Positions 1,056 to 27,452 of a stretch of DNA of 64,000 nt are shown here, one piece after another. The DNA is taken from contig JAKAGT010000010.1 of assembly GCA_021825585.1 (NCBI GenBank), positions 83,059-147,058 of the forward strand, read 5' to 3'. The position numbers and the translations under genes were made by a program. The notes under the pieces were generated by a model, which did no database searches, was not told the origin of the DNA, and worked only from the letters and a program-made list of their open reading frames with translations. The number at the start of each line of letters is the position of its first letter. Positions within the stretch are counted from its first letter, which is position 1. Source of the stretch: Bacteroidota bacterium. GTDB lineage: Bacteria; Bacteroidota; Ignavibacteria; Kryptoniales; JAKASW01.

Positions 1056-3734
1056 CTAAGGAACAACTTTAGCATAGGTGCCTGTTAAAAATTTGAAACT
1101 CATGTTTAGCTGCACTGCCCCGTGAGGTATGAGAACATACTTCCATGGTTTGCCAGCGTGCTTTATGGTGTAGTCGGTGGCATACTTACAGTACTCAAGG
1201 GCTGCTTTGGATTTCTGCTGAACCTCGTCGGAATTCATCTCGCCTTCCTTCTTTGTCTCCACCATATAGATGGCATCTGCCGTTTCTGCGACGAAGTCAG
1301 GGTGATATTGTCTTGTGTTGTGATTCCAGTAAATGTAGAACTGGTTCGATGCCGGCCTCAGCCACTTGAGGACGTCTTTGTCGCTTTCAAGAATGGCAGC
1401 GAAGTCCTTTTCTGTCTTGGAATCGAATTTGTATAGATTATGGCAGGCCTTTGAAAAGCCGCCGAAGATCTTGGTCGGGATTGCGCTTGTCGGTGTTATC
1501 GTGTCTGTGTAATGAAAGATGCTGTCCTTTGAATACTTCGAGTAATTGTGCTCCTCAATGCGGGTGAAAGCCCTTACGATCGGCTCCTGGAACGATGGCG
1601 TTTCAATGTAGAAATGCTCCATCAGCTGTGCATAGATGAAGTCGGCAATCTCTTTCTTGTGGTACTGAACAACGTTGACCAGCGGGTCCTCGTCAAGATA
1701 AGACCGGAAGTGTGTGATGGCTTCATCAGCAAGCTCAAATAAAAAGTCGGACTGTTTGTCGTAGTCGACCTCAGGGTGGTTGATCAGCTCGTTGACAATA
1801 ATATTGTCAAGCCTGTCGGGTATAATTCGACCTCCCCCGATTACTGTATCGGTGCCGTTTTCCTGTTCACGCAGCTTTTTTATCAGTATCTCCTCGGAAA
1901 CAGGCTGATATCTCAGATTCTTCGCGTCAAGAACGAAAGGCTTGAATCCGGACTTTACCTCGTTAGACTGTTGTATGACAATTCTCGGGATCTCTATGAT
2001 GTGCTGAGAAAATTCGGAAACAGCCGCTTCGTATTGCCTCTTTGCTTCGCTGATCAGCTCGCCGGCGAATAAGCTCTGCTGGGGATCAGAGGTTATGTGC
2101 TGCTCGATTTTCTGGAAGGCTATTTCGGCAACCTCTTTTGTGGTCAGGTCAGCTACGTTCTTTGCATCGGTGTTCAGTTCCGGAAGTACTGAGAGGATGA
2201 GTTTCTTTGCCTCCAGTTCGGAGAGCGCCTGTTTCTTTTCCGTTGCGTCGGTTATCGCCTCGATGCGCCGTTTGTCTTCCTCGGCCTTCTTATCGATTAC
2301 GGAGACGCTGGTAACAACCTCCTTCGACTGCTCCAGCTCATCGACATCGATCTCGATGATGTTTTCCTTCCTGATGATCGAGTCCGGCTTATTCGCTTCG
2401 TCAATGATTTCCTGAAACTTGTCATGTGCTACGATCGTGAGCTTGTCGACTTTGTCGGCGCCGGTGCGCTTCCCGTATGGAAGACGAAGTCCGCGGCCGA
2501 TTGTCTGCTCGCGAAGTGTCGTTGAAGCGGCCGCGCGAAGAGGAATAATCGTGTAAAGGTTTGTGACGTCCCAGCCCTCTTTCAGCATATTGACGTGAAT
2601 TACGATCTCGATCTTATTCTCCGGGCTCTCCAGAGAGACGAGCTGGGCTATGTTTTCGTCCTTCTCTTCACCGGACTGGTTGGAGTGAATCTCCATGACT
2701 TTATCCGCGTAACGGCCGTCGAAAAACGAAGGAGAGGTTATCAGTTCTTTGAGCTGGCTGGCATGCTCGGTATCCTTGGATACGACAAGGACAAACGGTT
2801 TTACTTTCTGAGTCCTGGAGTCACGTGAATAGATGTCGAGCGCGACTTTGGTATCTTCGTGGATCCGAATGCCATCTTCGAGCTTTATCCGGTCAAGTTC
2901 CTCAGCCTTGTAATGGGAGGGGTCAAAGTCTTTGCGTGTCGCTACCGCGGGTTCCTTCACGAAGCCGTCCCGAATTGCCTTGGCAAGAGAATACTCATAG
3001 ACCACGTTCTTGAACTTCGTGGTGCCGCCGCTTCGTTCGACCTGGGGTGTAGCAGTCAGCTCAAGGCCGAGGATCGGATTGAGCTCGTTTATGACTTCCA
3101 TTCCCCGCTCGGCACGGTAGTGATGGGATTCGTCCATCAGCAGAACCAGATCGTCCAGATTCGATAGGTAATTGAAATACGATTCGCCGAGGTATTCCAC
3201 AAGTCTCTTGATTCGCGGAAGCTTCCCACCGCGCATTTCTGAATTTATTTTTGAAATGTTGAACAAGTTTATATGCACTTCGGACTCAAACAGCGCAATC
3301 TGCGACAGCGAGTCGTAATTGTCCCCGGTTACTATTTTCGGGCGGGAGTGAACGAACTCTCCGATGCCCTGGAAGACGTATTTGGGGCTTGAGGTGTTTT
3401 CGAAGTCCGCGATCAGCTTGTTGTAGACGGTTAAGTTGGGAGCCAGGACGAAGAAGTTCTTAATCCCTTTCTCAAGGAATAAATAAGCGGCGAAGGCGCC
3501 CATCAGTCTCGTTTTCCCGACGCCGGTTGCCAGTGCGAAGCAGACCGATGGAAAGCTGCGCTCGAAATCAGAACAGGTCGGATAGAGTGACTTCACCTTA
3601 GCAAGTTCCGATTGAATGTCGGCGTTTTTCTTGAGAGTTAATCTATCCGTGATGGCGGAGAGGATATCGAGGCTGTCGGCTTGGGGCTGCCTGAGGCTGA
3701 GGCGGTTCTTGATCTGATTTGCGGTACGGTTCAT
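1056..3734 (-). CDS. res: Type III restriction enzyme, Res subunit (helicase-nuclease)
   Basis: This 892-residue protein is the ATP-dependent translocase and nuclease subunit of a type III restriction-modification system. Superfamily 2 helicase motifs are visible: Walker A ATGVGKTR at residues 69-76, DESHH at 201-205, TATP at 227-230, and a motif VI-like QTIGRGLRLP segment near residue 415. The C-terminal part holds a PD-(D/E)XK nuclease motif, D813 in HPDF followed by E826-T-K828. Length and domain order fit Res proteins. The methyltransferase partner lies upstream at 5545-7233, separated from res by a Bro-N gene, a GxxExxY gene and palindromic repeats, an unusual spacing because mod and res are normally adjacent. 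No clear Shine-Dalgarno sequence precedes the ATG, and repeat copy 3747-3847 begins only 12 bases upstream of it. Confidence 0.92.
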   Translation of the reverse strand: MNRTANQIKNRLSLRQPQADSLDILSAITDRLTLKKNADIQSELAKVKSLYPTCSDFERSFPSVCFALATGVGKTRLMGAFAAYLFLEKGIKNFFVLAPNLTVYNKLIADFENTSSPKYVFQGIGEFVHSRPKIVTGDNYDSLSQIALFESEVHINLFNISKINSEMRGGKLPRIKRLVEYLGESYFNYLSNLDDLVLLMDESHHYRAERGMEVINELNPILGLELTATPQVERSGGTTKFKNVVYEYSLAKAIRDGFVKEPAVATRKDFDPSHYKAEELDRIKLEDGIRIHEDTKVALDIYSRDSRTQKVKPFVLVVSKDTEHASQLKELITSPSFFDGRYADKVMEIHSNQSGEEKDENIAQLVSLESPENKIEIVIHVNMLKEGWDVTNLYTIIPLRAAASTTLREQTIGRGLRLPYGKRTGADKVDKLTIVAHDKFQEIIDEANKPDSIIRKENIIEIDVDELEQSKEVVTSVSVIDKKAEEDKRRIEAITDATEKKQALSELEAKKLILSVLPELNTDAKNVADLTTKEVAEIAFQKIEQHITSDPQQSLFAGELISEAKRQYEAAVSEFSQHIIEIPRIVIQQSNEVKSGFKPFVLDAKNLRYQPVSEEILIKKLREQENGTDTVIGGGRIIPDRLDNIIVNELINHPEVDYDKQSDFLFELADEAITHFRSYLDEDPLVNVVQYHKKEIADFIYAQLMEHFYIETPSFQEPIVRAFTRIEEHNYSKYSKDSIFHYTDTITPTSAIPTKIFGGFSKACHNLYKFDSKTEKDFAAILESDKDVLKWLRPASNQFYIYWNHNTRQYHPDFVAETADAIYMVETKKEGEMNSDEVQQKSKAALEYCKYATDYTIKHAGKPWKYVLIPHGAVQLNMSFKFLTGTYAKVVP

Positions 3735-3746
3735 AATGGTTTAATG

Positions 3747-3847
3747 GCACGCAGAAAACACTGAAGAAGCACAGATTCTCACTGATATGTCCATGATAAT
3801 CGTCTTATCTGTAATCATCTCGTATCTTTCGGTGTCATCTGTGTGCC
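3747..3847. repeat. Palindromic GCACAC/GTGTGC repeat, copy A
   Basis: An imperfect palindrome of about 100 bases with GCACGCAG at one end and CTGTGTGC at the other. It contains the blocks CACTGA, ATCTGTNNTCATCTCGT and TTTCNGTGT that recur in the other copies (3866, 4392, 5442, 12190, 12394, 12501). It lies just upstream of res. The transcript of either strand could fold into a long hairpin. Confidence 0.7.
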
Positions 3848-3865
3848 ATCCCTTTTTCTTTTATT

Positions 3866-3949
3866 GCACACTGATGACACTGAATCAACAGATTCGCACT
3901 GATTGAATTATCTGTGACCATCTCGTTTGTTTCAGTAAATTCTGCGTGC
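3866..3949. repeat. Palindromic GCACAC/GTGTGC repeat, copy B
   Basis: A second copy in direct succession to copy A, 84 bases long, running from GCACACTGATG to TTCTGCGTGC. Its last base is the first base (plus strand) of the CTA that reads as the TAG stop of the GxxExxY gene, so the gene ends exactly where the repeat begins on the minus strand. Confidence 0.7.
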
Positions 3950-4353
3950 TATTTCTTTTCCTTTCGGTCGTTTGTGAAGATCTTCCTCTTTATTTCAGGC
4001 TTTTTTCCAAAGTTGAGTAATAGCCCAACTTCAACATTTGTAGCCTTTAAGTAGTTAATAAGTTGATACTCATGTTCCTCAGCCAAAGCCTCAACAGCTT
4101 TGAGCTCAACGATGACTGTATCTTCCACAACAATATCGGCGAAATAGTCACCGACAATTGAATCCTTGAAATAAACCTTTATCGGTTGCTGAGCTTTTGC
4201 TCGCAAACCTTTTTCCGCAAGAACAACCAGCATCGCATTTTCATAAACCTTTTCCAGGAACCCGAAACCCAGAGTGTTGTAAACCTCATAGAAGCAGCTA
4301 ATGATCTTCTCGGTCAGTTCTTTGTGAAGATAGTTGCTCTTATCTGTGGTCAT
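3949..4353 (-). CDS. GxxExxY protein (PD-(D/E)XK-like nuclease family)
   Basis: A 134-residue protein with the family motif at G31-F-L-E34-K-V-Y37. A nuclease-like core follows, with D73 and E83-L-K85 spaced as in PD-(D/E)XK enzymes. GxxExxY proteins are small and poorly characterised, and are often found singly or inside unrelated operons. I place the start at the ATG at 4353. The longer open frame upstream to 4512 is only translated repeat sequence. That start codon lies inside a repeat block (GAGATGACCACAGATAAG) which also occurs in non-coding copies, and the stop codon touches copy B, so the gene sits precisely between repeat ends like a cassette. The function is unknown. Nuclease activity is inferred from the motif only. 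Confidence 0.82.
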   Translation of the reverse strand: MTTDKSNYLHKELTEKIISCFYEVYNTLGFGFLEKVYENAMLVVLAEKGLRAKAQQPIKVYFKDSIVGDYFADIVVEDTVIVELKAVEALAEEHEYQLINYLKATNVEVGLLLNFGKKPEIKRKIFTNDRKEKK

Positions 4354-4391
4354 CTCGTCTCTTTCTGTGTATTCTGTGTGCAAAAAGCTTC

Positions 4392-4540
4392 GCACACTTG
4401 CCGCCTTGCGGCATCCCGCATCATCTAATAAATCTGATGTCGGAGCGGGAGATAACACTGAAAACGCACTGATTCCCACTGATAAGAAAATGTTATTCCT
4501 ATCTGTGGTCATCTCGTCTTTTTCAGTGTAGTCCGTGTGC
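4392..4540. repeat. Palindromic repeat with hairpin core, copy D (plus half copy 4333-4381)
   Basis: This copy starts GCACACTTGCCGCCTTGCGG and holds a hairpin-forming core (GCCGC-CTT-GCGGC, then CATCCCGC pairing loosely with GCGGGAGAT) followed by the usual tail ending GTCCGTGTGC. Its last base overlaps the CTA that encodes the TAG stop of the Bro-N gene. A half copy lies immediately to the left, 4333-4381, and contains the start codon of the GxxExxY gene. Confidence 0.65.
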
Positions 4541-5385
4541 TATCTTTTCTTTCCGTTATCAAGTTCTCTCCTTTTTCTCTGAGAAAGCTCTTTGAAGTTC
4601 TTGCTGGTCACAACTTTCCTGCCCGATTTCTTTTCCAACTCTTTTCTTGCGTTTCCAGCGACTGTTCCACCTTCTACGGCGGCCCTTTCATTCTCGGGGA
4701 GCCCTTGAGCGTCTTTATTGCGGGCTATCTCGGTGGTTGCTGCCTCGCCGAGCATGGTGAATATCAATTCCAGATCGGTCATGTGATCGCGGAGATTCTC
4801 TTGTGGCTTCGACAAGCCTTTGAATTTCTTGTAGTCGGCTGGGCTCAAGCCAAAGGTGGCTTTGCTTATGTCGGCAGTAAGTATCGCATACTCGACGCCT
4901 TCTTTGACACCGCGTTTTTTCCATTCAGCGGTCAATTCGTCCCGGACAGCGATGCCGCGGACACGTTTTTCGATCCACTCATCGCTGTAACCTTTTGCTT
5001 TATAGATCTCCTTCATTCGCGTCTGGGCAAGCTCAGGATTCTCAATTTCCTCAAGGCGTTCATTCCCAACTTTTGCTAACCAGAGCTTGAAGGGTTCTGC
5101 TTTCGGAGAAGGAATGGATTGAATAATTCTCAACAAGCCTTGCGCGTTTGCACAACTCATTCGCTGTCTTCCACCTGGAGTATCAACCGAAAGGGCAGGT
5201 ACAAATTGTACCCATCCTTTGGCAAGTTCAGGATCACGCTGCTTCATTCGCTTCACATATTGCTTGGGATCGGCACTATCGGTCAAGGCGGCAACGACAT
5301 CTTCGACAACGAAGTAAAGTTTCTGGTCTGCGTCGTTCCAAGCTGATCGAATCTTCTTTTCTTCAAAGAGTTTAATGTTCGCCAT
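4540..5385 (-). CDS. Bro-N domain protein (phage antirepressor/DinD-like)
   Basis: A 281-residue protein whose first 110 residues match the Bro-N domain found in phage antirepressors and in DinD-type proteins (pattern IRSAWNDADQKLYFVVEDVV, then DPKQYVKRMKQRD and a GLLRIIQSIPSPKAEPFKLWLA segment). The C-terminal half is charged and helical (roughly residues 120-281) with a lysine/arginine-rich end. Proteins of this kind are frequently encoded inside restriction-modification loci, where a regulatory or DNA-damage role has been suggested, but the biochemical function is not settled. A strong GAGGAGG lies upstream of the ATG. A perfect 17-base inverted repeat sits a few bases further upstream and could be an operator. 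The stop codon coincides with the edge of a repeat copy. Confidence 0.82.
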   Translation of the reverse strand: MANIKLFEEKKIRSAWNDADQKLYFVVEDVVAALTDSADPKQYVKRMKQRDPELAKGWVQFVPALSVDTPGGRQRMSCANAQGLLRIIQSIPSPKAEPFKLWLAKVGNERLEEIENPELAQTRMKEIYKAKGYSDEWIEKRVRGIAVRDELTAEWKKRGVKEGVEYAILTADISKATFGLSPADYKKFKGLSKPQENLRDHMTDLELIFTMLGEAATTEIARNKDAQGLPENERAAVEGGTVAGNARKELEKKSGRKVVTSKNFKELSQRKRRELDNGKKR

Positions 5386-5403
5386 GCATAAGCCTCCTCA
5401 AAG

Positions 5404-5420
5404 CGTGACAATTTGTCACG
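5404..5420. promoter_or_regulatory. Perfect inverted repeat upstream of the Bro-N gene
   Basis: CGTGACAATTTGTCACG is a perfect 8+1+8 palindrome lying 5 bases beyond the Shine-Dalgarno sequence of the Bro-N gene. It could be a binding site for a dimeric regulator, possibly the Bro-N protein itself, or a small hairpin affecting translation. The palindrome is seen directly; the role is inferred. Confidence 0.4.
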
Positions 5421-5441
5421 GTTTCGTTTCCCTCTTCTTTT

Positions 5442-5538
5442 GCACACAGATTCCACAGAAGAAGCACTGATTTTCACTGATAAGGAAATATTATTCTTAT
5501 CTGTGTTCATCTCGTTTCTTTCTGTGTATTCTGTGTGC
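5442..5538. repeat. Palindromic GCACAC/GTGTGC repeat, copy E
   Basis: A 97-base copy without the hairpin core, running from GCACACAGATTCCACAG to TATTCTGTGTGC. It lies between the Bro-N and mod genes and ends 6 bases before the mod stop codon. Confidence 0.7.
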
Positions 5539-5544
5539 TTTCTT

Positions 5545-7233
5545 TCAGAACAGCCTCTCCTGTTTTTCATCCGCCTTCTGCCTCTTTGACTTCGATGGGT
5601 TGGAGGCGATAGGGCCGGTCGGAACGAAATCGGGTTCACCGTCTTCTCGGGGCATATTTATGATGTTCAGACTGTAATCCTCTTTGCCGAACTCGCACCG
5701 GCCAAGGAGCATCTTCGGAATCTTCTTGATCGTGATGTTCGGGTACTTATCAGCAGCCTTGCTGAAAGAGGTGCAGCAGATCAGAAGACTTTCATCCGAT
5801 TTCATTTCGCTCTGAATTGTATCCACTAAGTCGACGCTGACGAAGTTCGTCGTGGTGAAGATATAGTCCTTTTCAGTGGACTGGCCCTGCTTCCAGTAGT
5901 AGGTTTCGTCCGGCTGGAATCGGAATCCTTCATGTTTTGCCATTGCGGCGGCAAGCTGTGCAGCATTGTACTGCTTGTTGATGATCCAGTTGCCCTTCTT
6001 GTCCTGGAGAAGCAAAGATGGAGCGAGGTAGTAGTACTTGAATCCACCGCCGCCCTTCCAGTTCTGAGCTTCGCTGATGCCGCCCTGGTCTGTTCCATCA
6101 CAGACCATCTTTAGCCGAGGAATGCAATGAGTATGGCAATGTTCGCCAAGTTCGATGCCAATCCATTTGCGCTTCATCTTGTGAGCGACAGCGGCTGTAG
6201 TGCCTGAACCAAGGAAGGAGTCGAGAACCCAGTCGCCTTCCTTTGAACCAACAGCAATAATGCGGTCGATTAGGCGTTCAGGCTTGGGGGTTGCAAAAAT
6301 CTCCTCGCTGTTGAAATCCTTCACTTCTCGCTTTGCCTCTTGGTTATCACCGACTTCTTGTCGGAGCCATATGGTCTGGCACACCATTCCTTCTTGGACT
6401 TCCGAAAGGAATCGCTTCACCCGAGGTACGTTATTTCCATTAGCGCCGAAATAAAGTCGTTTATCTGCTAATAGTTCCTGATACCTCTTGGGACTTGCGC
6501 CCCAGCACCGACCACTGGGCGGAAGTAGTGTTCGTCCGGACGGCGTTACAATCTCATAAATGTTTCCACTTTCACCAGTTCGTGCAAATTGGGCGCCACG
6601 TTGTCCGCCAGTGAGACTAATCGTAAAGTCACTTGACATCCACATTCCGCGAGGGTCATTGTCCGGGTTTCTGTATCTTGACTCAGCCAGCACTGATCTC
6701 TCAAGTAAATTCGGTCTCCATGTTTGTTTGTCCCTTGCATATACAAGTATGTGGTCATGACTGTCGGAAAGCCAAACCGCATTGGCCTGCGGGGAAGATT
6801 TCTTCTGCCAAATGACATTGTTCACGAAGTTTCTTCTCCCAAAAACTTCATCGCATAAGATCTTTAAATAATGGCTTTCATCGTCATCGATGGATATCCA
6901 GATTGAGCCGTCATTGCTAAGCAGCGAATACAGAAGCTCAAGACGGGGTTTCATCAGGTTCAGCCAGATTGAATGTTCGAGGCTGTCATCATAGTGTTCG
7001 AATGCGTTGCCCGTGTTGTACGGTGGATCGATGTAAATGCACTTTATCTTTTCAGCAAAGTTCTGTTCGAGTGCCTTCAAGGCGAGCAGGTTGTCACCGT
7101 AGATGAGCATGTTCTCGGTGTTCTTGTCGCCGTAAGACTTCTCTGGATCTTCGATGAGGATTCGCGGCTCGAGCTTGGGCTGCTCGCCTTTGCCGATCCA
7201 GCTTAGTTCGAGTTTTTGTTTGTTGTTAGTCAT
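5545..7233 (-). CDS. mod: Type III DNA-methyltransferase, Mod subunit (adenine-specific)
   Basis: A 562-residue beta-class DNA methyltransferase. The catalytic motif DPPY is at residues 69-72 (YIDPPYNTGNAF) and the S-adenosylmethionine motif FLGSGTT at 340-346, the order expected for N6-adenine or N4-cytosine beta-class enzymes. The region between them (about 150-320) is the target-recognition part. In a type III system Mod methylates one strand of a short non-palindromic site and also guides Res. It lies 83 bases downstream of gajB and is read in the same direction, so Gabija and restriction genes may be co-transcribed. The start at 7233 has no obvious Shine-Dalgarno sequence. The protein ends QKADEKQERLF, common for such Mod proteins. 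Confidence 0.93.
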   Translation of the reverse strand: MTNNKQKLELSWIGKGEQPKLEPRILIEDPEKSYGDKNTENMLIYGDNLLALKALEQNFAEKIKCIYIDPPYNTGNAFEHYDDSLEHSIWLNLMKPRLELLYSLLSNDGSIWISIDDDESHYLKILCDEVFGRRNFVNNVIWQKKSSPQANAVWLSDSHDHILVYARDKQTWRPNLLERSVLAESRYRNPDNDPRGMWMSSDFTISLTGGQRGAQFARTGESGNIYEIVTPSGRTLLPPSGRCWGASPKRYQELLADKRLYFGANGNNVPRVKRFLSEVQEGMVCQTIWLRQEVGDNQEAKREVKDFNSEEIFATPKPERLIDRIIAVGSKEGDWVLDSFLGSGTTAAVAHKMKRKWIGIELGEHCHTHCIPRLKMVCDGTDQGGISEAQNWKGGGGFKYYYLAPSLLLQDKKGNWIINKQYNAAQLAAAMAKHEGFRFQPDETYYWKQGQSTEKDYIFTTTNFVSVDLVDTIQSEMKSDESLLICCTSFSKAADKYPNITIKKIPKMLLGRCEFGKEDYSLNIINMPREDGEPDFVPTGPIASNPSKSKRQKADEKQERLF

Positions 7234-7316
7234 ATCTGTAATGTGTAATTCTGCTTCGTTGTCTCATATCCTCTTCGGCAACATTCTCTTTTTTGCGCAG
7301 AATGGGATTAGGTCTA

Positions 7317-9062
7317 TCAGGTAATATCAAGTTTCTTCCTCCATACTTCACAATCACTTTCAGGCACAGCGATCCATAATATTTTACGAGGACGTGTCAT
7401 GGCGACATAAACCGTTCTAAGTTCTTCTTTTTGTTTACTGGACAAAGTCTTTTTAGGAAATAGTAAAGTCTCATAATTTGAGTTGCCTGCTTTGTGAGCA
7501 AGAACCAACATGACCGCCTCGAAAGTCTTGCCTTTGGCTGAGTGAATTGTTCCCAAAAAACACTCAGCGTTTGATGGTTGGGCATCCATTTTAAATAGAT
7601 TCTTTATGGCCACATCTGATTTCTTAGCATGTGTGCTCAACTTAATGTTGATCTTATCACTCAAGAGGAGCTGGTTTGCTTCGGCTATCCACTGCTTCAA
7701 CACTGCTTCGCGAGTCGGGGGCAAGAGATTAGCGAATTGAAAAATCTTGTTCCGATAGCTCTTGAAGCCTAGCTCTTCAATTTTGTTATTGATGAATTCC
7801 TCGGAACAGAATTTTAGGCCTGGCTCCACTGCCTTATGGTATCCCCTTTCAATTGATCTGAAACCTCTTCTAAAATCTCCGCTTTCCAGCAAAAACTTTC
7901 CAAAAACAATTTCTCTCACATAGCCATGATTAGTGAGCCACGGCTCTTCGGTTTCTTCAATGGTTGATACTCCGCACCATTTGCCTACAACACGGCGGCT
8001 CCGGAATAGCACGGCGACATCCTCTGAATTAATAGTGATCTGTCTGTCCTTGCAACACTGCAGGTATTCTTGCACAATCTGGTTTACACTTTTTTCGTCC
8101 TCTTTGTGCATTACTACGCGGGGCTTGTAATTGTAATCCTTGTCTGCTCCTATCACTTCGTAGTTTGGGATGCCAAGAAGATGTCGGCTACAATCACAGA
8201 TGGATCTTGAACTCCTCCTGTTCTCATTCAGATCTATTCGACACCACTTCTCCAGTTCATATTTCTTCGTGAATAGTTCTGGCCTAGCATTATTCCATTC
8301 AAAGATTGCTTGGTCAGGGTCTCCAATCAAAGCAATTTGATTCAAGCCCTTGTCCTTCAATATGTCAATAATTGCTATTTGTAGGTCATTTGTATCCTGA
8401 CCTTCGTCAATAATGAAGTGTGAAAACCTATTCAGGATGCCTTTCCCTATGAGACTGTAATCCTTCAAGATTCTATGCGCGATGTATATCGCGTCGGACT
8501 GGTTGGCTTTTCCGTCTTTGAAAAGTGTCTCTTTCGAGCTTCGAATGTGATTCCGTAAATGGAGATATTTACCTCCAAAGAAGGTATTGAGAATATTTCC
8601 GATGGGTATCACTTCCCCTGCGATATCGAAACTGAATAGATCAAAATATTGATAGAAAGCTTTTTCTCCATTGCCTAGGTTCGGATAATACCATCTGTTG
8701 TAAGGTTCTCCGACTAACTCTGGACGTTTTCCGCAGCTCATTATCAGGTGGCCAAATGGCAAGAAGATGTATTGATTTATGAAACTATCGATGGTTCCGA
8801 TGAAGTGAGGGTATCCTACAGGAGTTTTGACATTAAAGGCTTCTTTGAGTTTCTTTTCTATTTCTTGCCAAGCCACATTTGTAAAAGAAAGTGCTGCAAT
8901 ACCTTTACGGGAAAAATCAAATTGGGGATCATGAAGCAATCGGGCGATCCGCGCGGCAACCGAATATGTCTTGCCGCTACCTGGACAGGCCTTCACGACA
9001 AAAATTCCATCCTGGTTGACTACTCTTTTTTGCTGTGCCGACAATGAATCTTCATTTATCAT
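7317..9062 (-). CDS. gajB: Gabija protein GajB, UvrD-like helicase
   Basis: A superfamily 1 (UvrD/Rep-type) helicase of 581 residues from the ATG at 9062. Motifs in order: Walker A PGSGKT at residues 27-32, FIIDEGQDTND (Walker B), IGDPDQAIFEWNNA (motif III), a GTIHSAKGKTFEAV segment (motif V) and VYVAMTRPR (motif VI). The chosen start overlaps the last 11 bases of the upstream gene (ATGATAAATGA), the tight coupling seen between gajA and gajB. An open frame continues 30 codons further upstream inside gajA but carries no helicase sequence. In Gabija, GajB is thought to sense DNA ends and nucleotide changes and to activate the GajA nuclease. The region is visibly A+T-rich (21 G or C in 60 bases at 8341-8400), which suggests transfer. 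Confidence 0.88.
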   Translation of the reverse strand: MINEDSLSAQQKRVVNQDGIFVVKACPGSGKTYSVAARIARLLHDPQFDFSRKGIAALSFTNVAWQEIEKKLKEAFNVKTPVGYPHFIGTIDSFINQYIFLPFGHLIMSCGKRPELVGEPYNRWYYPNLGNGEKAFYQYFDLFSFDIAGEVIPIGNILNTFFGGKYLHLRNHIRSSKETLFKDGKANQSDAIYIAHRILKDYSLIGKGILNRFSHFIIDEGQDTNDLQIAIIDILKDKGLNQIALIGDPDQAIFEWNNARPELFTKKYELEKWCRIDLNENRRSSRSICDCSRHLLGIPNYEVIGADKDYNYKPRVVMHKEDEKSVNQIVQEYLQCCKDRQITINSEDVAVLFRSRRVVGKWCGVSTIEETEEPWLTNHGYVREIVFGKFLLESGDFRRGFRSIERGYHKAVEPGLKFCSEEFINNKIEELGFKSYRNKIFQFANLLPPTREAVLKQWIAEANQLLLSDKINIKLSTHAKKSDVAIKNLFKMDAQPSNAECFLGTIHSAKGKTFEAVMLVLAHKAGNSNYETLLFPKKTLSSKQKEELRTVYVAMTRPRKILWIAVPESDCEVWRKKLDIT

Positions 9063-10899
9063 TAACAGCCCACTTGATTCCCTTTTGGATATAATCTGGG
9101 ACAATAAACTTGGACCTAAGCTCTTCAAAATGATCTTGTAGATGCATCGCAAGCTTGTGAGCTAATTCAGATTTGTCTCTAAAGGAATCGAGTTTGTCTA
9201 GCAGGTCCATGGCCCGTTCTTCATTACTTCCTTCGCGCTTTAACTTAGTATGGGTATGAATTCCTTCGTAAATCTCACGCATTATTTTTTCGTTTTCATC
9301 CGAAGCAGTGAATAATTCATACTCGAAAGTCTTTCGTGCTAAAAGGACATCGACATTGCCTTTCTTCAGGCTCTCTGCGATCAAAGCCCGTGGCGACTTG
9401 TTCCCGCCATTCCTGTGGCTGTCATCATCTGTTAGGAGCGCACAATGTATGTTGAGTTTCTTTGCGCCGTCTTTATCCGAAGCTATGAAGAGATTAGCAA
9501 AATGTTCAAACGCAACTCCGCCGACGACCACTACTTCTATGCCTTTCCGTGCTATGTCATATTTTATCTCTTTGTGACCGTCGTCTTTGCCTTCGTTAGC
9601 AAGGTGATCCATGATCTTTGAAAATATCGGAAGTAATAGTCCTTCAGAAATTCCTTCAACTAAAATTATTCCCTTTGAGAAAAACAATTGCGACTTTGTA
9701 ACATCAAGAAACTTAGAAAGGTATTTCCTGTTTTCTGGTGACAGATTGGAGTCTTTCAATGCCAGAGAAGAGACTTCACCAAAGTTCCTCCTCATCACCG
9801 TAATAAACTCAAGATTTGTTTTAGCAGTTATTGTTGGGGAATGAGATGTAATGAATATCTGGATATCTTTGTCCTCAAACGAGTTAATGTATTTGAAAAA
9901 AGTGTTTTGCATCTGAGGGTGCAAGTGCGCTTCAGGTTCCTCAATTAGCAAAGCATGATAATAGCCCTTTTCCTTTCTATTGATCAAATCTCCCAAGACT
10001 GTTGCCGCGTAGATTAAGTTGTTCTCTCCAAGTCCGTTTTGAAATAGAGTGAAGTATCTTTGCTCTGCTCCATGTTGGATCTTTTCTTCACTTAAAATCG
10101 GAATCTGCAACTGAAGGTTATTTATGATATCGTCATATTCGTACCCCGAGAATCCAACTTCTATTTCTTTATTGTCGCCTTGAATGGATGATTCTTTGAA
10201 ATGTTTATTGACCTTCGTCTCCCCTTCCGCTATCAAGTATTTCCAATCGTTACCATCGTCATTGAGCCAATTTACTAGCTTGTCCGCAAGTTCCTTCTTT
10301 TTCTCCTTATCCAATTTCTGTGTACCACCATCTTTGGTGTATTGCAGTAAGCTTTCGAACAGCGAAACCAACTTATTATTGTGGCTGTACGGTCGCAGCT
10401 TTTGTGTTGCATCCCTCAGCGCATCCAAGAATGTGTAGTCTATGAATTGAAGGGGCTCAGAAGGAACACCCTGCCCTTCATTCGTGCCACCCCATATTTT
10501 CCAGCGAGGTATCTTTCTGTCGTTTTTCTCTTCCAACCGATAACGAAAATGAATCTGGATTTCTTGAGACTCGACGTTGTCTTTATCTTGAAAGAGCAAC
10601 TCATTGAACAGGCCGCGTTCAGAATCGTCTTCAATATGAAAATGCAAATCAAACTCGATCTCAGGCAGCGTAACAGTACTGCTATCTTTATCAATGTGGA
10701 AGTCGGACGGTCGAATACCGATGTCCCGCCATTGCTTGCCATACCCAAGACAAATCCTCAAAGCGTCGATCATCGACGACTTGCCCGAATTGTTTTCACC
10801 AATGAAAACATTGACCCCTTTGTTGAAGGTCAAATCTAAAGATTCAATGCAGCGGAAATTACGGATCTTGAATTCTCGCAAGTACATAGGTGATTTCAT
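9052..10899 (-). CDS. gajA: Gabija protein GajA, OLD-family ATPase/TOPRIM nuclease
   Basis: A 615-residue OLD-family protein. The N-terminal ABC-type ATPase shows Walker A GENNSGKS at residues 34-41, a signature-like GLGENNL near 289, Walker B LLIEEPE at 317-323 and the TSHSP switch at 351-355. The C-terminal TOPRIM nuclease follows with E415 (ILVEG) and the acidic cluster D491-D-D493 (LLTDDDSH). An OLD nuclease directly followed and overlapped by a UvrD-like helicase is the definition of the Gabija anti-phage system. Known GajA proteins are slightly shorter, under 600 residues. The start ATG at 10899 overlaps the upstream DUF2130 gene by 4 bases. A second in-frame ATG at 10887 has better spacing to the GGAG and is an alternative. 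Confidence 0.9.
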   Translation of the reverse strand: MKSPMYLREFKIRNFRCIESLDLTFNKGVNVFIGENNSGKSSMIDALRICLGYGKQWRDIGIRPSDFHIDKDSSTVTLPEIEFDLHFHIEDDSERGLFNELLFQDKDNVESQEIQIHFRYRLEEKNDRKIPRWKIWGGTNEGQGVPSEPLQFIDYTFLDALRDATQKLRPYSHNNKLVSLFESLLQYTKDGGTQKLDKEKKKELADKLVNWLNDDGNDWKYLIAEGETKVNKHFKESSIQGDNKEIEVGFSGYEYDDIINNLQLQIPILSEEKIQHGAEQRYFTLFQNGLGENNLIYAATVLGDLINRKEKGYYHALLIEEPEAHLHPQMQNTFFKYINSFEDKDIQIFITSHSPTITAKTNLEFITVMRRNFGEVSSLALKDSNLSPENRKYLSKFLDVTKSQLFFSKGIILVEGISEGLLLPIFSKIMDHLANEGKDDGHKEIKYDIARKGIEVVVVGGVAFEHFANLFIASDKDGAKKLNIHCALLTDDDSHRNGGNKSPRALIAESLKKGNVDVLLARKTFEYELFTASDENEKIMREIYEGIHTHTKLKREGSNEERAMDLLDKLDSFRDKSELAHKLAMHLQDHFEELRSKFIVPDYIQKGIKWAVNDK

Positions 10900-12164
10900 T
10901 CTCCAGTTTGGTTTTCGTTCGAACCCAACAGCTTCATATCCAAGCCTTCAATCTCCTGCATTGTCTTGCCCGCGATGCCCTGCAAGTCTCCGTACATACC
11001 AACCGTCGCTACCATCACGTGTTCGATCTGCTCTTCTCTCTTGGCCCACTGCTTCGTGATGGCTTTCTTCTCCCTATCCAGGTTTTCCTGCATCGTGGAA
11101 AAAGCCTCGACGATAGCCTGCACGCGCTGCCGGAAGCGCGGGCCGGTAAGATACTGATATACCATCTCCATCTTGGTTTGCTGACCTTCAGTGGCAAGTC
11201 GGGCGGAGGCCGTCTCAATGAGTCCCTGACGCAGCAGGAGCGCAACTGCCAAGGCAGCTTTGGGAGTCGTAACGTAAACGCCATCAACCAGGTCGAAGAG
11301 GTCAACATTCTTTGGCAGCGATTGTGACACTATTACGGCAATCTCGGCCTTCGCGGCTCGCTGATCTTCGCGGAGCTTCGGCAGCCACGAATCGCTCCAG
11401 GCTTTCGTACGCTTCGATTCCCAAATTATTGTTCCACTCTGCTGGCCGAGCGGACTGACAACTCTTTGCAGAACATCGCCGCCGTGTTCGCCCTTGGCAA
11501 CGGGTTCAATCAGGTCATGTGGAAATTTGGAGCGCAACAAGCTTTCCAGCTCAAGCTCCTGGACCTCACCCTGCAGCTGCTGCGAGCCTTGCTCAGCTTT
11601 TCGCTTCATCTCCTCAGCGAGTTTCTTTTGATCGTCAAGTTGCTTTTCCAACTCTCTAATCTTCATGGTAGAAGATTCATCGAGTTGTTTTTGGATTTTT
11701 ACTCTTTCTTCCTTCAGCTTCTCCGAGTATTCTTTCTCTTTTTCGAGAGCTACTTCATCACGAAGCTCATTCTTTTCACGTTTAAGCTTTTCAATTTCGG
11801 CTTTGGCTTTATTAAGATCTTTTACCTGTCCGGATTTCTGTTCGAGTTCTCTCTGCAAAGACTTGATTTGCGCGTCCGTCTCTTCTTTCATTTCTTCACG
11901 AATGGACTTCTCCATCTTGAGTTTTTCAGAGTTGAGCTTTGCCTTGATTCCTTCGTTGATCTGCTTCTGGAGATGTTCTCGATCCTTTTCCAGTTTCTCT
12001 TTTTCCTCGTCTAAGGACTTGACCTTCTTCTCTAACTCTTTTTCTTTCTTTGCACTTTTCTCGTCATACTCTTTTTTGAGTTGCTCCTGGACCTGGCGAT
12101 ATAAGATTTCGCTAACATCGATTTTTGCGCCGCATTTCGGGCAGTTTATTGTTGGTTCTGCCAT
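10896..12164 (-). CDS. DUF2130 coiled-coil protein
   Basis: A 422-residue protein starting with a short CPKCG zinc-ribbon half (C8, C11), then a very long lysine/glutamate-rich coiled coil from about residue 20 to 215, then a DUF2130 domain from about 225 to 390. The domain contains an ESKRTKAWSDSWLPKL segment, in which the glutamate-x-lysine is placed like the core of PD-(D/E)XK nucleases. DUF2130 proteins are widespread and of unknown function, often near defence genes. The stop overlaps the gajA start by 4 bases, so it is the promoter-proximal member of the Gabija transcription unit. A GAGG lies 9 bases upstream of the start codon. A role as an accessory to Gabija is inferred from context alone. 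Confidence 0.85.
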   Translation of the reverse strand: MAEPTINCPKCGAKIDVSEILYRQVQEQLKKEYDEKSAKKEKELEKKVKSLDEEKEKLEKDREHLQKQINEGIKAKLNSEKLKMEKSIREEMKEETDAQIKSLQRELEQKSGQVKDLNKAKAEIEKLKREKNELRDEVALEKEKEYSEKLKEERVKIQKQLDESSTMKIRELEKQLDDQKKLAEEMKRKAEQGSQQLQGEVQELELESLLRSKFPHDLIEPVAKGEHGGDVLQRVVSPLGQQSGTIIWESKRTKAWSDSWLPKLREDQRAAKAEIAVIVSQSLPKNVDLFDLVDGVYVTTPKAALAVALLLRQGLIETASARLATEGQQTKMEMVYQYLTGPRFRQRVQAIVEAFSTMQENLDREKKAITKQWAKREEQIEHVMVATVGMYGDLQGIAGKTMQEIEGLDMKLLGSNENQTGE

Positions 12165-12189
12165 GGTTACCTCATGAATTCAAAAAATA

Positions 12190-12383
12190 GCACACTTGCC
12201 GCCTTGCGGCATCTCCCGTCAAAAAGATTTTGTATGTCGGGATCCCGCAAAGCGGTGACCGCATCATTTAATAAATCTGATGCCAGAGCGGGAGATGACA
12301 CAGAAGAAGCAATGATTTTCACTGATAAGAAAACAATATTTCTATCTGTGATCATCTTGTCTCTTTCCGTGTGTTCTGTGTGC
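12190..12383. repeat. Palindromic repeat with hairpin core, copy F
   Basis: A full-length copy of about 194 bases. The core (GCCGCCTTGCGGC, CATCTCCCG pairing with CGGGAGATG about 70 bases on, and an internal CCGCAAAGCGG) is followed by the CACTGA...ATCTGTGATCATCTTGT...GTGTGC tail. It lies 26 bases upstream of the DUF2130 start codon, so the island promoter must lie within or just before it. Confidence 0.7.
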
Positions 12384-12393
12384 TAAGAGCTTT

Positions 12394-12490
12394 GCACACC
12401 GAGAACACTGAAAAGGCACTGATTTTCATTGATAAGAAAATAGCATTTCTATCCGTGGTCATCTCGTTTCTTTCTGTGTATTCTGTGTGC
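12394..12490. repeat. Palindromic repeat without core, copy G
   Basis: A 97-base copy resembling copy E (GCACACCGAGAACACTG to TATTCTGTGTGC), placed between the two full-length copies F and H. Short open frames here are translations of the repeat and not genes. Confidence 0.65.
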
Positions 12491-12500
12491 CAAAAACTTT

Positions 12501-12694
12501 GCACACTTGCCGCCTTGCGGCATCTCCCGTCAAAAAGATTTTGTATGTCGGGATCCCGCAAAGCGGTGACCGCATCATTTAATAAATCTGATGTCGGAGC
12601 GGGAGATGACACAGAAGAAGCAATGATTTTCACTGATAAGAAAACAATATCTCTATCTGTGGTCATCTTGTTTCTTTCTGTGTATTCTGCGTGC
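12501..12694. repeat. Palindromic repeat with hairpin core, copy H
   Basis: A second full-length copy, nearly identical to copy F over about 190 bases, including the core TTGTATGTCGGGATCCCG and AATAAATCTGATG blocks. F, G and H form a direct tandem array at the upstream end of the defence island. Confidence 0.7.
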
Positions 12695-13153
12695 CGTTGT
12701 TTTATTCTGTCACCCACTGCCATCGGGATTTTCGGTATGAGATAAAGCTGGTTACTCATACAAGATATTGATCCAAAGAGTACTTTGGACAAATTCACTC
12801 TAGAATAGAGTTTTCCGAAATCATGACGGTCCGCCCTTCTGTAAATTGTGATCAGCCAGTCCCAAATTACTGTTGGGTAAAATTTATACGATATACCGAG
12901 GAATAACAAACGTCCGACCCGTTCGGCATGCCTAGTGCAATATCAGGAATCAATTCCAACAAATCATCTTCTACAATAGTAGACAAATGTTCACCAAGAA
13001 AAATGTATCTCTCCTGAAAGAGAAAGTCAAGATGGTAGGTGTATTGCAGGATAATATTAGTATCCCACTGAAAAACAGGAGGATACCAGGATAGGCAGAC
13101 TATCTTTTATTGTGAAATATCAGATAGAATTCCGTCTATCTACCTTAAAATAA
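12695..13153. other. No gene recognised between the repeats and the next gene
   Basis: An A+T-rich stretch. A minus-strand open frame covers 12700-12909 (beginning LFLGISYKFYPTVIWDWLI) but runs straight into the repeat array, has no ribosome-binding site I can see and resembles no family I know. It may be a gene remnant. Nothing else is supported. Confidence 0.4.
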
Positions 13154-26396: not shown

Positions 26397-27452
26397 ATAG
26401 CTGATAGCTGTCGTCGGGTTAAACGGGTTCGGATAGTTCTGGTCAAGACTGAAATGCGTCGGCGAGTTGGTTGAGAACCTTTCCACTGAGGTAATCATCT
26501 GCGACAACGGTCGTCTCCAGGCGCCGCTGCCGTTGGTCCCGGCAAAGAGATTCGCGTGGAAGACGGCAAGGGCGTTGACATAAGTATTCGTCAAGCCGGT
26601 ATTGATCGCCGTCCAGCTTGTGCCGCTATTGGTGGAAAGAAAAACGCCGCCGCTATTAGTCCCGGCAAAGAGATTCGTGCCGGAGACAACAATGGCATTG
26701 ACATAAGTGTCCGTCAAGCCGCTATCGATTTGAGTCCAGGTTGTGCCGTTGTTGGTCGATAGATAGATACCGGCGCCATCAGTCCCGGCAAAGATGTTCG
26801 TACCGGAGACCGTAAGGACATTGACAACGGTGGTCCGCAAGACCCAATTCCAAGTTGTGTCGCTGCCGGCCAGCAGAAAGATGCCGTTATCAGTCCCGGC
26901 AAAGATGTTCGTGCCGAGGGCGGCGAGAGCAGAAACACCAGTATAAATCAAGCCGTTATTGACGGCGGTCCAGCTTCTGCCGCTATTGGTGGAACGACAG
27001 ACACCGCCGCCATTCGTCCCTGCATAGAGATCCGTGCCGCTTGCACCGTTGGGGGAGACGGCAAAAGACCAGACATCAGTGTTCGTTAAACCGATACTCG
27101 CCGCAGTCCAGCTTAGCCCCCTATTGGTGGAAAGAAAGACGCCGCTGCTATTAGTCCCGGCAAAAAGATTCGTGCCGCCTGCACCGTTGGGGGAGACGGC
27201 AAGAGCATGGACATAGATGTCCGTCAAGCCGGAATCCACTGGTGTCCAGCTTGAGTCGATATGTCTCAAAATAAAGACGCCTCCGCCATAACTCCCGGCA
27301 AAGAGATCCGTGTCGCCTACTCCGTTGGGGGAAACGGCAAAACAGGTAACATTGAGGTAGGGTCCATTGGTTTGGACCCATTGGGCATGCAATGGATTCG
27401 TAGTGGTGAATAGGCAAAACACCACAAACAGGAATCGGAAAATATTTTTCAT
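26373..27452 (-). CDS. Secreted BNR/sortilin-like propeller protein, C-terminal domain frameshifted off
   Basis: A 359-residue product from the ATG at 27452 (AAAAGGAGA upstream; the frame to 27629 is not needed). A signal peptide ends near residue 24 (NPLHAQ). About seven BNR-type blades follow, each with the pattern NxFAGTNxGGVFxSTNxGxSWTAxNxGLTxTYVxALAVS. The protein then enters the T9SS linker LDQNYPNPFNPTTAIS and stops 10 residues later. The sorting domain continues in another frame (26203-26396). Blades of this type are common in secreted proteins of the Ignavibacteria group. Function of the blades unknown. The abrupt end inside the heptad repeat suggests a phase-variable or decayed gene. 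Confidence 0.72.
   Translation of the reverse strand: MKNIFRFLFVVFCLFTTTNPLHAQWVQTNGPYLNVTCFAVSPNGVGDTDLFAGSYGGGVFILRHIDSSWTPVDSGLTDIYVHALAVSPNGAGGTNLFAGTNSSGVFLSTNRGLSWTAASIGLTNTDVWSFAVSPNGASGTDLYAGTNGGGVCRSTNSGRSWTAVNNGLIYTGVSALAALGTNIFAGTDNGIFLLAGSDTTWNWVLRTTVVNVLTVSGTNIFAGTDGAGIYLSTNNGTTWTQIDSGLTDTYVNAIVVSGTNLFAGTNSGGVFLSTNSGTSWTAINTGLTNTYVNALAVFHANLFAGTNGSGAWRRPLSQMITSVERFSTNSPTHFSLDQNYPNPFNPTTAISYQPTASSV

What the first reader, a model, noticed from the sequence alone, without database searches (positions are those of the whole stretch)
1056..12164. Gabija operon nested with a split type III restriction system
Seven minus-strand genes follow one another: DUF2130, gajA, gajB, mod, Bro-N, GxxExxY, res. 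gajA/gajB overlap by 11 bases and DUF2130/gajA by 4. Mod and Res are usually neighbours but are here separated by Bro-N, GxxExxY and repeats. Restriction targets unmodified phage DNA, while Gabija reacts to DNA ends and nucleotide depletion. A single transcript could deliver both in sequence, with cuts made by Res becoming substrates of GajA. The gene identities are well supported; the cooperation is inference.
Basis: partly seen in the sequence, partly recalled or inferred. Interest (0 to 1): 0.75.

Follow-up and report, generated by a model that had tools for sequence, protein, structure and literature searches.

The report
Restriction operon with swappable Gabija cargo
A bacterial restriction operon carries the phage-defence system Gabija at the place where related operons carry other defence genes, so Gabija is likely a swappable second line of defence, while the repeats between the genes resemble the ends of a separate, probably mobile nuclease gene that sits among them.

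Summary
The seven genes, their strand and both overlaps are confirmed. A joint Gabija-restriction system is only partly supported. The window's mod/res belongs to a family found in many phyla. In 56 of 79 mod loci examined a DrmD-like SNF2 helicase lies upstream; between it and mod lie 91 same-strand genes of 50 protein clusters (AAA, AIPR, GmrSD, Schlafen, SIR2, Abi_2, DUF2130) at a median spacing of 15 nt. Complete Gabija lies upstream of mod in the window and in 1 of 80 loci, and after res in one more: a recurrent cargo, not a fixed partner. A gene lies between mod and res in 27 of 72 loci, so that split is common. Eight of 80 loci keep short copies of the ends of mod or res beside cargo; in one, a copy of the mod start follows gajB, so Gabija probably once abutted mod there. 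The repeats go with GxxExxY, a PD-(D/E)XK nuclease gene usually flanked by inverted arrays of ~10-bp-phased CRCNRAK sites. One array pattern is in excess only in genomes with the gene (395 hits vs 17 control; 28 vs 24 without it). This is probably an undescribed mobile repeat. Cooperation of Res and Gabija is untested.

The parts
1056..3734 (-). res, type III restriction subunit (892 aa)
   Evidence: PF04851 78 bits; PADLOC REase_III 4.6e-183; 67-69% identical to the res beside the mod relatives L053 and L054
3743..3951 (.). two ~100-nt palindromic repeats between res and GxxExxY
   Evidence: DNA folding z -2.4 and -0.6
3949..4353 (-). GxxExxY protein, small PD-(D/E)XK nuclease (134 aa); its ATG lies in the flanking repeat
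   Evidence: TIGR04256 137.6 bits, cut-off 35; PF13366 142.5 bits; model pLDDT 91.6, best fold match Cas4-type SSO0001 ('Cas4' recalled)
4331..4556 (.). half repeat upstream of GxxExxY plus one full palindromic repeat overlapping the Bro-N stop
   Evidence: folding z -3.5 for 4441-4542
4540..5385 (-). Bro-N / PDC-S13 protein in the mod-res gap
   Evidence: PF02498 44.6 bits; PADLOC PDC-S13 4.4e-116; no tblastn match at 1e-6 in the 80 mod loci
5438..5554 (.). palindromic repeat overlapping the mod stop
   Evidence: folding z -6.7
5545..7233 (-). mod, type III methyltransferase (562 aa)
   Evidence: PF01555 173.6 bits; PADLOC MTase_III 8.5e-196; DPPY and FLGSGTT
7317..9062 (-). gajB, UvrD-like helicase of Gabija
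   Evidence: PADLOC GajB 1.2e-192; ATG at 9062
9052..10899 (-). gajA, OLD-family AAA+TOPRIM nuclease of Gabija (615 aa)
   Evidence: PADLOC GajA 8.5e-156; PF13175, PF20469
10896..12164 (-). DUF2130: CxxC motif, coiled coil and predicted PD-(D/E)XK domain (422 aa)
   Evidence: PF09903 254 bits; invariant C8, C11, D230, E249, K251 in 15 rows; clade with type III-linked DUF2130
12182..12710 (.). three palindromic repeat copies upstream of DUF2130
   Evidence: folding z -1.7, -2.9, -2.7

Best explanation
This is a type III restriction-modification operon in whose cargo slot upstream of mod lie DUF2130 and Gabija, predicted to act as an interchangeable second line of defence, while the repeats resemble the ends of a GxxExxY nuclease element that is likely mobile. 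Shown by comparison: the stretch between an SNF2 helicase and mod holds different, largely defence-type genes in relatives, on the same strand and tightly packed; 8 of 80 loci carry truncated copies of the ends of mod or res beside cargo; Gabija lies upstream of mod in a second, unrelated locus; most GxxExxY copies looked at have their own inverted end arrays, and one array pattern is in excess only in genomes that hold the gene. Inferred: Mod and Res methylate and cut unmodified phage DNA; DUF2130 (predicted nuclease) and GajAB act when restriction is evaded or when ends and nucleotide depletion appear, as PrrC does for its restriction enzyme; cargo enters by recombination at the ends of mod or res; GxxExxY binds or cuts its phased site arrays and so spreads them, which has broken up the mod-res side of this operon.
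For: Gene identities. Mod and Res remain a pair: both find L053 and L054 at 67-69% identity. Slot: 56 of 79 loci examined (80 fetched; L135 dropped for want of an intact mod frame) have the SNF2 gene in reach, with 91 same-strand ORFs of at least 100 aa in 50 clusters (two of the 91 are mod copies), 3 opposite-strand ORFs, median spacing 15 nt and 98 of 147 spacings at most 50 nt. Cargo families. Annotated plasmids show the same frame: SNF2-AIPR-HTH-hypothetical-VapC-mod-res and, with an empty slot, SNF2-mod-res. Gabija upstream of mod in L099. Scars. DUF2130 of the window and five type III-linked loci form one clade, 100/99. GxxExxY: inverted ends, phased motif, replication on 20 further loci, presence/absence at one orthologous site, genome-wide link.
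Against: The window has no SNF2 gene next to DUF2130 and no mod scar, and in L099 the SNF2 gene is not in view, so that Gabija entered the slot rests on comparison. Gabija with this mod is rare (2 of 80). Scars are absent in 72 of 80 loci, and none of 7 further loci tested shows one at a cargo border. DUF2130 of this clade also occurs without an annotated type III operon on rhizobial plasmids. Defence genes lie downstream of res too (Cas, pAgo, PD-T4-9, HEC-06), so ordinary island crowding contributes. The window's own GxxExxY copy has only a weak inverted match of its flanks (score 24, reached by 3 of 24 cross pairs), and the own genome has just 1 hit to the array pattern (control 1). No co-transcription or phage data exist here. 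No target-site duplication was established for GxxExxY.
Confidence: 0.65

Rival explanations
1. Gabija and the type III enzyme form one dedicated system: Res-made DNA ends are the substrate of GajA, and all genes are needed together.
For: Tight same-strand run from DUF2130 to mod with 4- and 11-nt overlaps. A second case upstream of mod, L099, where a copy of the mod start lies 10 nt after gajB. Gabija after res in L109.
Against: Complete gajAB with this mod in 2 of 80 relatives; the place upstream of mod otherwise holds many other families. The two other gajA relatives in 247 phylum genomes (L060, L061) stand without this mod or res in the stretches fetched.
Confidence: 0.1
2. Ordinary defence-island crowding: the systems are neighbours by chance, without a slot or shared regulation.
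For: Defence genes also lie downstream of res in relatives. Gabija is rare next to this mod.
Against: 91 same-strand versus 3 opposite-strand ORFs and a median spacing of 15 nt in the slot. Copies of the ends of mod and res beside cargo. A DUF2130 subfamily shared by type III loci of several phyla.
Confidence: 0.2
3. The repeats are ordinary intergenic hairpins (terminators or mRNA stabilisers) that merely resemble what flanks GxxExxY.
For: They lie at gene ends and 5 of 7 copies fold significantly (z -2.4 or lower). Several overlap stop codons. The window's own GxxExxY flanks match each other only weakly in inverted orientation.
Against: Many GxxExxY copies have their own end sequence with the same phased motif. 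The array pattern is in excess only in genomes with the gene: 28 of 99 with three or more hits versus 0 of 99.
Confidence: 0.09
4. GxxExxY is itself functional cargo of restriction operons, not a selfish element.
For: It lies between mod and res in the window and in two unrelated loci, L079 and L112, and a remnant lies in that gap of a second type III locus of the same genome, L014.
Against: It is found in 99 of 198 genomes of the phylum, in 74 of them in two or more copies, far more than type III mod relatives (20 of 247). Presence/absence and decay to bare ends at one site.
Confidence: 0.1

Closest known systems
Defence genes embedded in restriction loci (PrrC and RloC; DarTG2 between hsdS and hsdR; 'guilt by embedding')
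   Same: A second, often abortive defence gene lies inside a restriction operon. PMC2610378 gives RloC linkage to type I or III loci as 8/73; PMC12255303 describes DarTG2 between hsdS and hsdR; PMC3506569 says AIPR and toxin-like genes are linked to type III loci (passages seen).
   Different: Here the host is a type III family with an SNF2 helicase, the cargo is Gabija plus DUF2130, and some relatives carry copies of the ends of mod and res beside cargo. None of these was found in the searches listed in the full report.
Gabija (GajA-GajB)
   Same: Both genes, order, overlap and domains.
   Different: Preceded by a 4-nt-overlapping DUF2130 gene and followed by mod; the gajAB loci L060 and L061 have neither.
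Type III restriction-modification (Mod-Res)
   Same: Families and active-site motifs.
   Different: Mod and Res are 1.8 kb apart, with Bro-N, GxxExxY and repeats between them.
DISARM (DrmD)
   Same: The one SNF2 helicase scanned (L072) matches PADLOC DrmD at 1.1e-202.
   Different: Here it accompanies type III mod and res; the window lacks this gene next to DUF2130.
REP/RAYT and MITE-like palindromic repeats (recalled)
   Same: Short palindromic units at gene borders, linked to one gene family, with copies away from the gene.
   Different: The gene is a Cas4/Hjc-type PD-(D/E)XK nuclease, not a tyrosine transposase, and the ends are arrays of ~10-bp-phased CRCNRAK sites.

Membership tests
Gabija | GajA: OLD-type AAA ATPase with TOPRIM | tested here: met
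   PF13175 and PF20469; PADLOC GajA 8.5e-156
Gabija | GajB: UvrD-like helicase directly after gajA | tested here: met
   PADLOC GajB 1.2e-192; 11-nt overlap
Gabija | Anti-phage activity of the pair | not testable with these tools
   needs a phage assay
Type III restriction-modification | Mod with N6/N4 methylase motifs and Res with SF2 helicase and nuclease motif | tested here: met
Type III restriction-modification | Mod and Res adjacent and cognate | tested here: inconclusive
   Separated by two genes; both find L053 and L054 at 67-69% identity; a gene between them in 27 of 72 relatives
DISARM | DrmA, DrmB and DrmC with a DISARM methylase | not tested
   Only the DrmD-like gene of L072 was scanned; no search for the other genes was made
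GxxExxY (TIGR04256) | Score above curated cut-off; G.G..E..Y and D..ExK residues | tested here: met
   137.6 bits versus 35; G29, G31, E34, Y37, D73, E83, K85 invariant in 39 rows
REP/RAYT elements | Y1 (HUH) transposase beside the palindromes | tested here: not met
   The Pfam scan of the island's seven proteins gives no transposase family; GxxExxY gives only PDDEXK_3
Insertion sequence or MITE | Terminal inverted repeats | tested here: met
   For most GxxExxY copies: 17 of 25; 19 of 30; 13 of 20; weak for the window's own copy
Insertion sequence or MITE | Target-site duplication | tested here: inconclusive
   Empty and filled copies of one site were read side by side but are too diverged to fix borders to the base
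PDC-S13 | Match to the PADLOC model | tested here: met
   4.4e-116, residues 3-275; function untested

The most novel reading that the evidence does not exclude
GxxExxY genes are the nuclease genes of an undescribed class of mobile repeat: a minimal Cas4/Holliday-resolvase-like PD-(D/E)XK enzyme bracketed by inverted arrays of ~10-bp-phased CRCNRAK sites, with hairpin copies away from the gene in the same genomes. In this window it has colonised the borders of a restriction operon that itself gathers swappable defence cargo by recombination at the ends of mod and res.
Probability: 0.6. Interest if true: 0.8.

Novelty: new variant of a known kind. Interest (0 to 1): 0.62.

Why it matters
It turns a single odd island into a testable rule: a type III restriction operon family, spread over many phyla, appears to act as a chassis with a slot for interchangeable second-line defences, and some relatives keep truncated copies of mod or res beside cargo that hint at how cargo enters. 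Unassigned cargo genes (cluster c6, ~931 aa; the 910-aa protein of L077) become defence candidates. Separately, it links a common protein family on which two listings were all that our search found (GxxExxY) to a repeat class, which makes the origin of these 'CACAGAG/CGCAAAG' repeats (name mine) directly testable.

Tried and rejected
A fixed Gabija-restriction system was rejected on counts (2 of 80 loci). DUF2130 as a part of Gabija was rejected: it clusters with type III loci and is absent beside gajAB in L060 and L061. DUF2130 as exclusive to type III loci was also rejected: five rhizobial plasmid copies nest in the clade; PLSDB gene tables are incomplete, L241 has a restriction endonuclease and a methyltransferase gene 5-9 kb away and L243 a DEAD/DEAH helicase gene. 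A repeat remnant in the gajB-mod gap was tested and not significant. A mod scar in the window was sought and not found. Promoter and terminator scans gave no usable signal. The DUF2130 fold search gave only weak matches (best E 0.015). The tree used 23 of the 30 loci; left out were L189 (own), L193, L204 and L212 (stop codons), and L200, L201 and L214; the tree used 11 of those 23. One search used 25 copies of the 34 rows, one with a stop codon (L042); one search left out two near-copies (L031, L041). One search took the first 20 rows that had no locus, G000 rows excluded; two of them (L228, L231) are neighbours in one genome with overlapping flanks. The motif CRCNRAK was chosen after seeing the loci, so only and the reversed-pattern control are independent. 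Motifs in the wrong orientation also occur (two or more in 16 of 53 and 7 of 20 loci). One query (gxx2) was out of frame and useless.
Full report
OBSERVATION. The seven minus-strand genes are real. Pfam, NCBIfam and PADLOC scans give res, GxxExxY (TIGR04256), Bro-N (PADLOC PDC-S13), type III mod, gajB, gajA and DUF2130. Overlaps are as stated: 4 nt between DUF2130 and gajA, 11 nt between gajA and gajB with gajB starting at ATG 9062. The gap from gajB to mod is 83 nt, against 159, 186 and 214 nt at the three other gaps, each of which holds repeats. Active-site motifs are intact.

WHERE IT COMES FROM. The window lies on contig 9 of a 4.97-Mb genome. So the window is probably from an Ignavibacteria-type bacterium (inference).

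THE RESTRICTION OPERON FAMILY. In 247 genomes of the phylum, mod relatives at E<=1e-60 occur in 20 and gajA relatives in 3, the own genome included; only the own genome is in both lists. The closest relatives with their operon in view (L053, L054; mod 68% and res 67-69% identical) have AAA-AIPR-mod-YhcG-res in one tight operon and no match to Gabija, Bro-N or GxxExxY (AIPR and YhcG named by eye; Pfam AIPR matches 6 of 91 slot proteins). A scan of named genomes kept the best 80 of 519 confirmed mod relatives, from many phyla. An SNF2 helicase of ~964 aa clusters in 58 loci and lies upstream of mod in reach in 56 of 79 examined (L135 dropped for lack of an intact mod frame). The one scanned, from L072, matches PADLOC DrmD at 1.1e-202. 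Between it and mod lie 91 same-strand ORFs of at least 100 aa in 50 clusters and only 3 opposite-strand ones; two of the 91 are mod copies (L123, L125). 98 of 147 spacings are at most 50 nt; nine loci have an empty slot. Pfam counts among the 91 (25 of 50 families are listed): AAA_21 14, AIPR 6, Schlafen AlbA_2 6, GmrSD_N 5, Peptidase_M78 5, DUF2130 4, DUF3800 4, Abi_2 3, SIR2_2 2, AAA_13 2. PADLOC models matched include mad3 (14 of 91), AriA, PtuA, LmuB, AbiU, HEC-06 and Old (25 of 468 listed). Genes downstream of res, taken as a comparison (74 genes), show another profile with Cas, PD-T4-9 and pAgo, but also HEC-06 and mad2 (25 of 217 listed). A same-strand ORF of at least 100 aa lies between mod and res in 27 of 72 loci. 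Annotated plasmids show the same frame: SNF2-mod-res with an empty slot and SNF2-AIPR-HTH-hypothetical-VapC-mod-res; a third has SNF2, about 1 kb without listed genes, mod and res.

GABIJA AS CARGO. Complete gajA-gajB occurs in L099 upstream of mod (the SNF2 gene is not in view there) and in L109 after res; L095 and L133 have only OLD- or helicase-type relatives. This is 2 of 80, of which 61 had at least 5 kb upstream and 57 at least 7.7 kb downstream. No Bro-N relative was found in the 80.

DUF2130. It is directly followed by a different gene in each type III locus: gajA here, OLD in L072, AAA_13 (PDC-S06) in L142, the split c6 protein in L096, a 910-aa protein without family in L077; in L068 an opposite-strand ORF and mod follow. 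Window plus five such loci (Bacteroidota, Nitrospirota, Thermodesulfobacteriota, Pseudomonadota) form one clade with 100/99 support against 23 other DUF2130 of the phylum. Against exclusivity, five rhizobial plasmid DUF2130 without an annotated type III mod-res pair within about 9 kb nest inside that clade. The protein has an invariant CxxC, and D230, E249 and K251 are invariant in 15 rows. The model (pLDDT 77, pTM 0.37) has an alpha-beta-beta-beta-alpha-beta core. The fold search lists many PD-(D/E)XK enzymes, all weakly (best E 0.015; superfamily names recalled).

SCARS BESIDE CARGO. Eight of 80 loci hold short same-strand copies of the ends of mod or res near cargo. Copies of the mod start: L087 (three, 69-136 bp, 90-97% identical, separating four successive cargo genes in front of mod), L076 (two, 52 and 87 bp, 79 and 83%), L099 (98 bp, 89%, starting 10 nt after gajB), L123 (319 bp, 93%, followed by a DUF2130 fragment), L127 (206 bp, 84%). 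Copies of the res start: L066 (94 bp, 72% in DNA, 84% over 32 aa) and L094 (60 bp, 93%). Copies of the mod end: L094 (243 bp, 92%) and L064 (32-54 bp; partly inside the cargo ORF and the start of res, the least clear case). In one search every partial mod copy is terminal; the other rows are second full mods (L110, L125), distant methylases at 26% (L113, L136), and the mod of L135. In the DNA self-comparison of 79 loci, 7 matches involve the mod start, 2 the res start, 2 the mod end (L094 and the tandem mods of L125), 1 the mod interior (tandem mods of L110), 1 the mod against itself (L100), and L115 has matches involving the res interior; 20 further repeats in 10 loci involve neither gene. 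None of seven further loci (five plasmids, L053, L054; L053 is the same genome as L065) has such a scar at a cargo border; one plasmid (L248) has several partial mod copies in tandem. The order [start-of-gene copy]-[cargo]-[full gene] is what a single crossover between a cargo-plus-gene-start fragment and the resident gene would leave (inference). In L099 the scar suggests that Gabija once directly preceded mod, as it does in the window. The window itself has no scar.

GxxExxY IN MOD-RES GAPS. It lies between mod and res in L079 and L112, and a remnant lies between an unrelated type III mod and res in the own genome (L014). Whether that is a preference or chance was not tested.

LITERATURE. 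Searches for GxxExxY (2 papers, listing only), PDDEXK_3/PF13366 (1, listing only), Gabija with type III and DUF2130, type III with SNF2 and cargo, type III with DrmD, RloC/PrrC and embedding terms showed, in titles and abstract starts, no account of the slot, of Gabija as type III cargo, of the scars, or of GxxExxY ends. The idea of embedded defence is known: passages seen in PMC3506569, PMC2610378, PMC12255303, PMC12707154 and PMC12988326. The Payne 2024 preprint was seen only as a reference-list entry. The library lacks most subscription papers. Gabija biochemistry is recalled, apart from titles in a reference list.

VERDICT. The gene list is right. The cooperation idea is one untested possibility among many cargoes. 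The stronger results are the swappable slot with end-of-gene scars and the GxxExxY repeat system. On checking, confidence in the best explanation was lowered from 0.66 to 0.65 because the window's own GxxExxY flanks match only weakly and L099 shows no SNF2 gene.

Noticed in passing
window 5404-5420: Perfect palindrome CGTGACAATTTGTCACG just upstream of the Bro-N start (5385), operator-like, inside the mod-Bro-N gap.
   Followed up: no
L014 4649-12279 (own genome, contig 50): A second, unrelated type III mod and res in the same genome with a truncated GxxExxY and an IS200-type transposase-like ORF between them (the last named by eye, no family search).
   Followed up: partly
L087 3880-9141: Row of cargo genes in front of mod, three borders each carrying a 69-136-bp copy of the start of mod.
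   Followed up: yes
L239-L243: DUF2130 of the type III-linked clade without an annotated type III operon on rhizobial plasmids, in L242 and L243 next to a RelE/ParE-HTH pair.
   Followed up: partly
L248 6561-12434: Several partial and complete type III mod copies in tandem before one res on a Ligilactobacillus plasmid, 83-89% identical in DNA; looks like a recombining mod set.
   Followed up: no
L137, L143, L111, L096, L120, L121 (cluster c6): A cargo protein family (median 931 aa); its L096 member has no Pfam family and only marginal PADLOC matches, so it is a candidate new defence gene.
   Followed up: no
window 26522-27342: Tandem arrays of 123-138-bp units.
   Followed up: no
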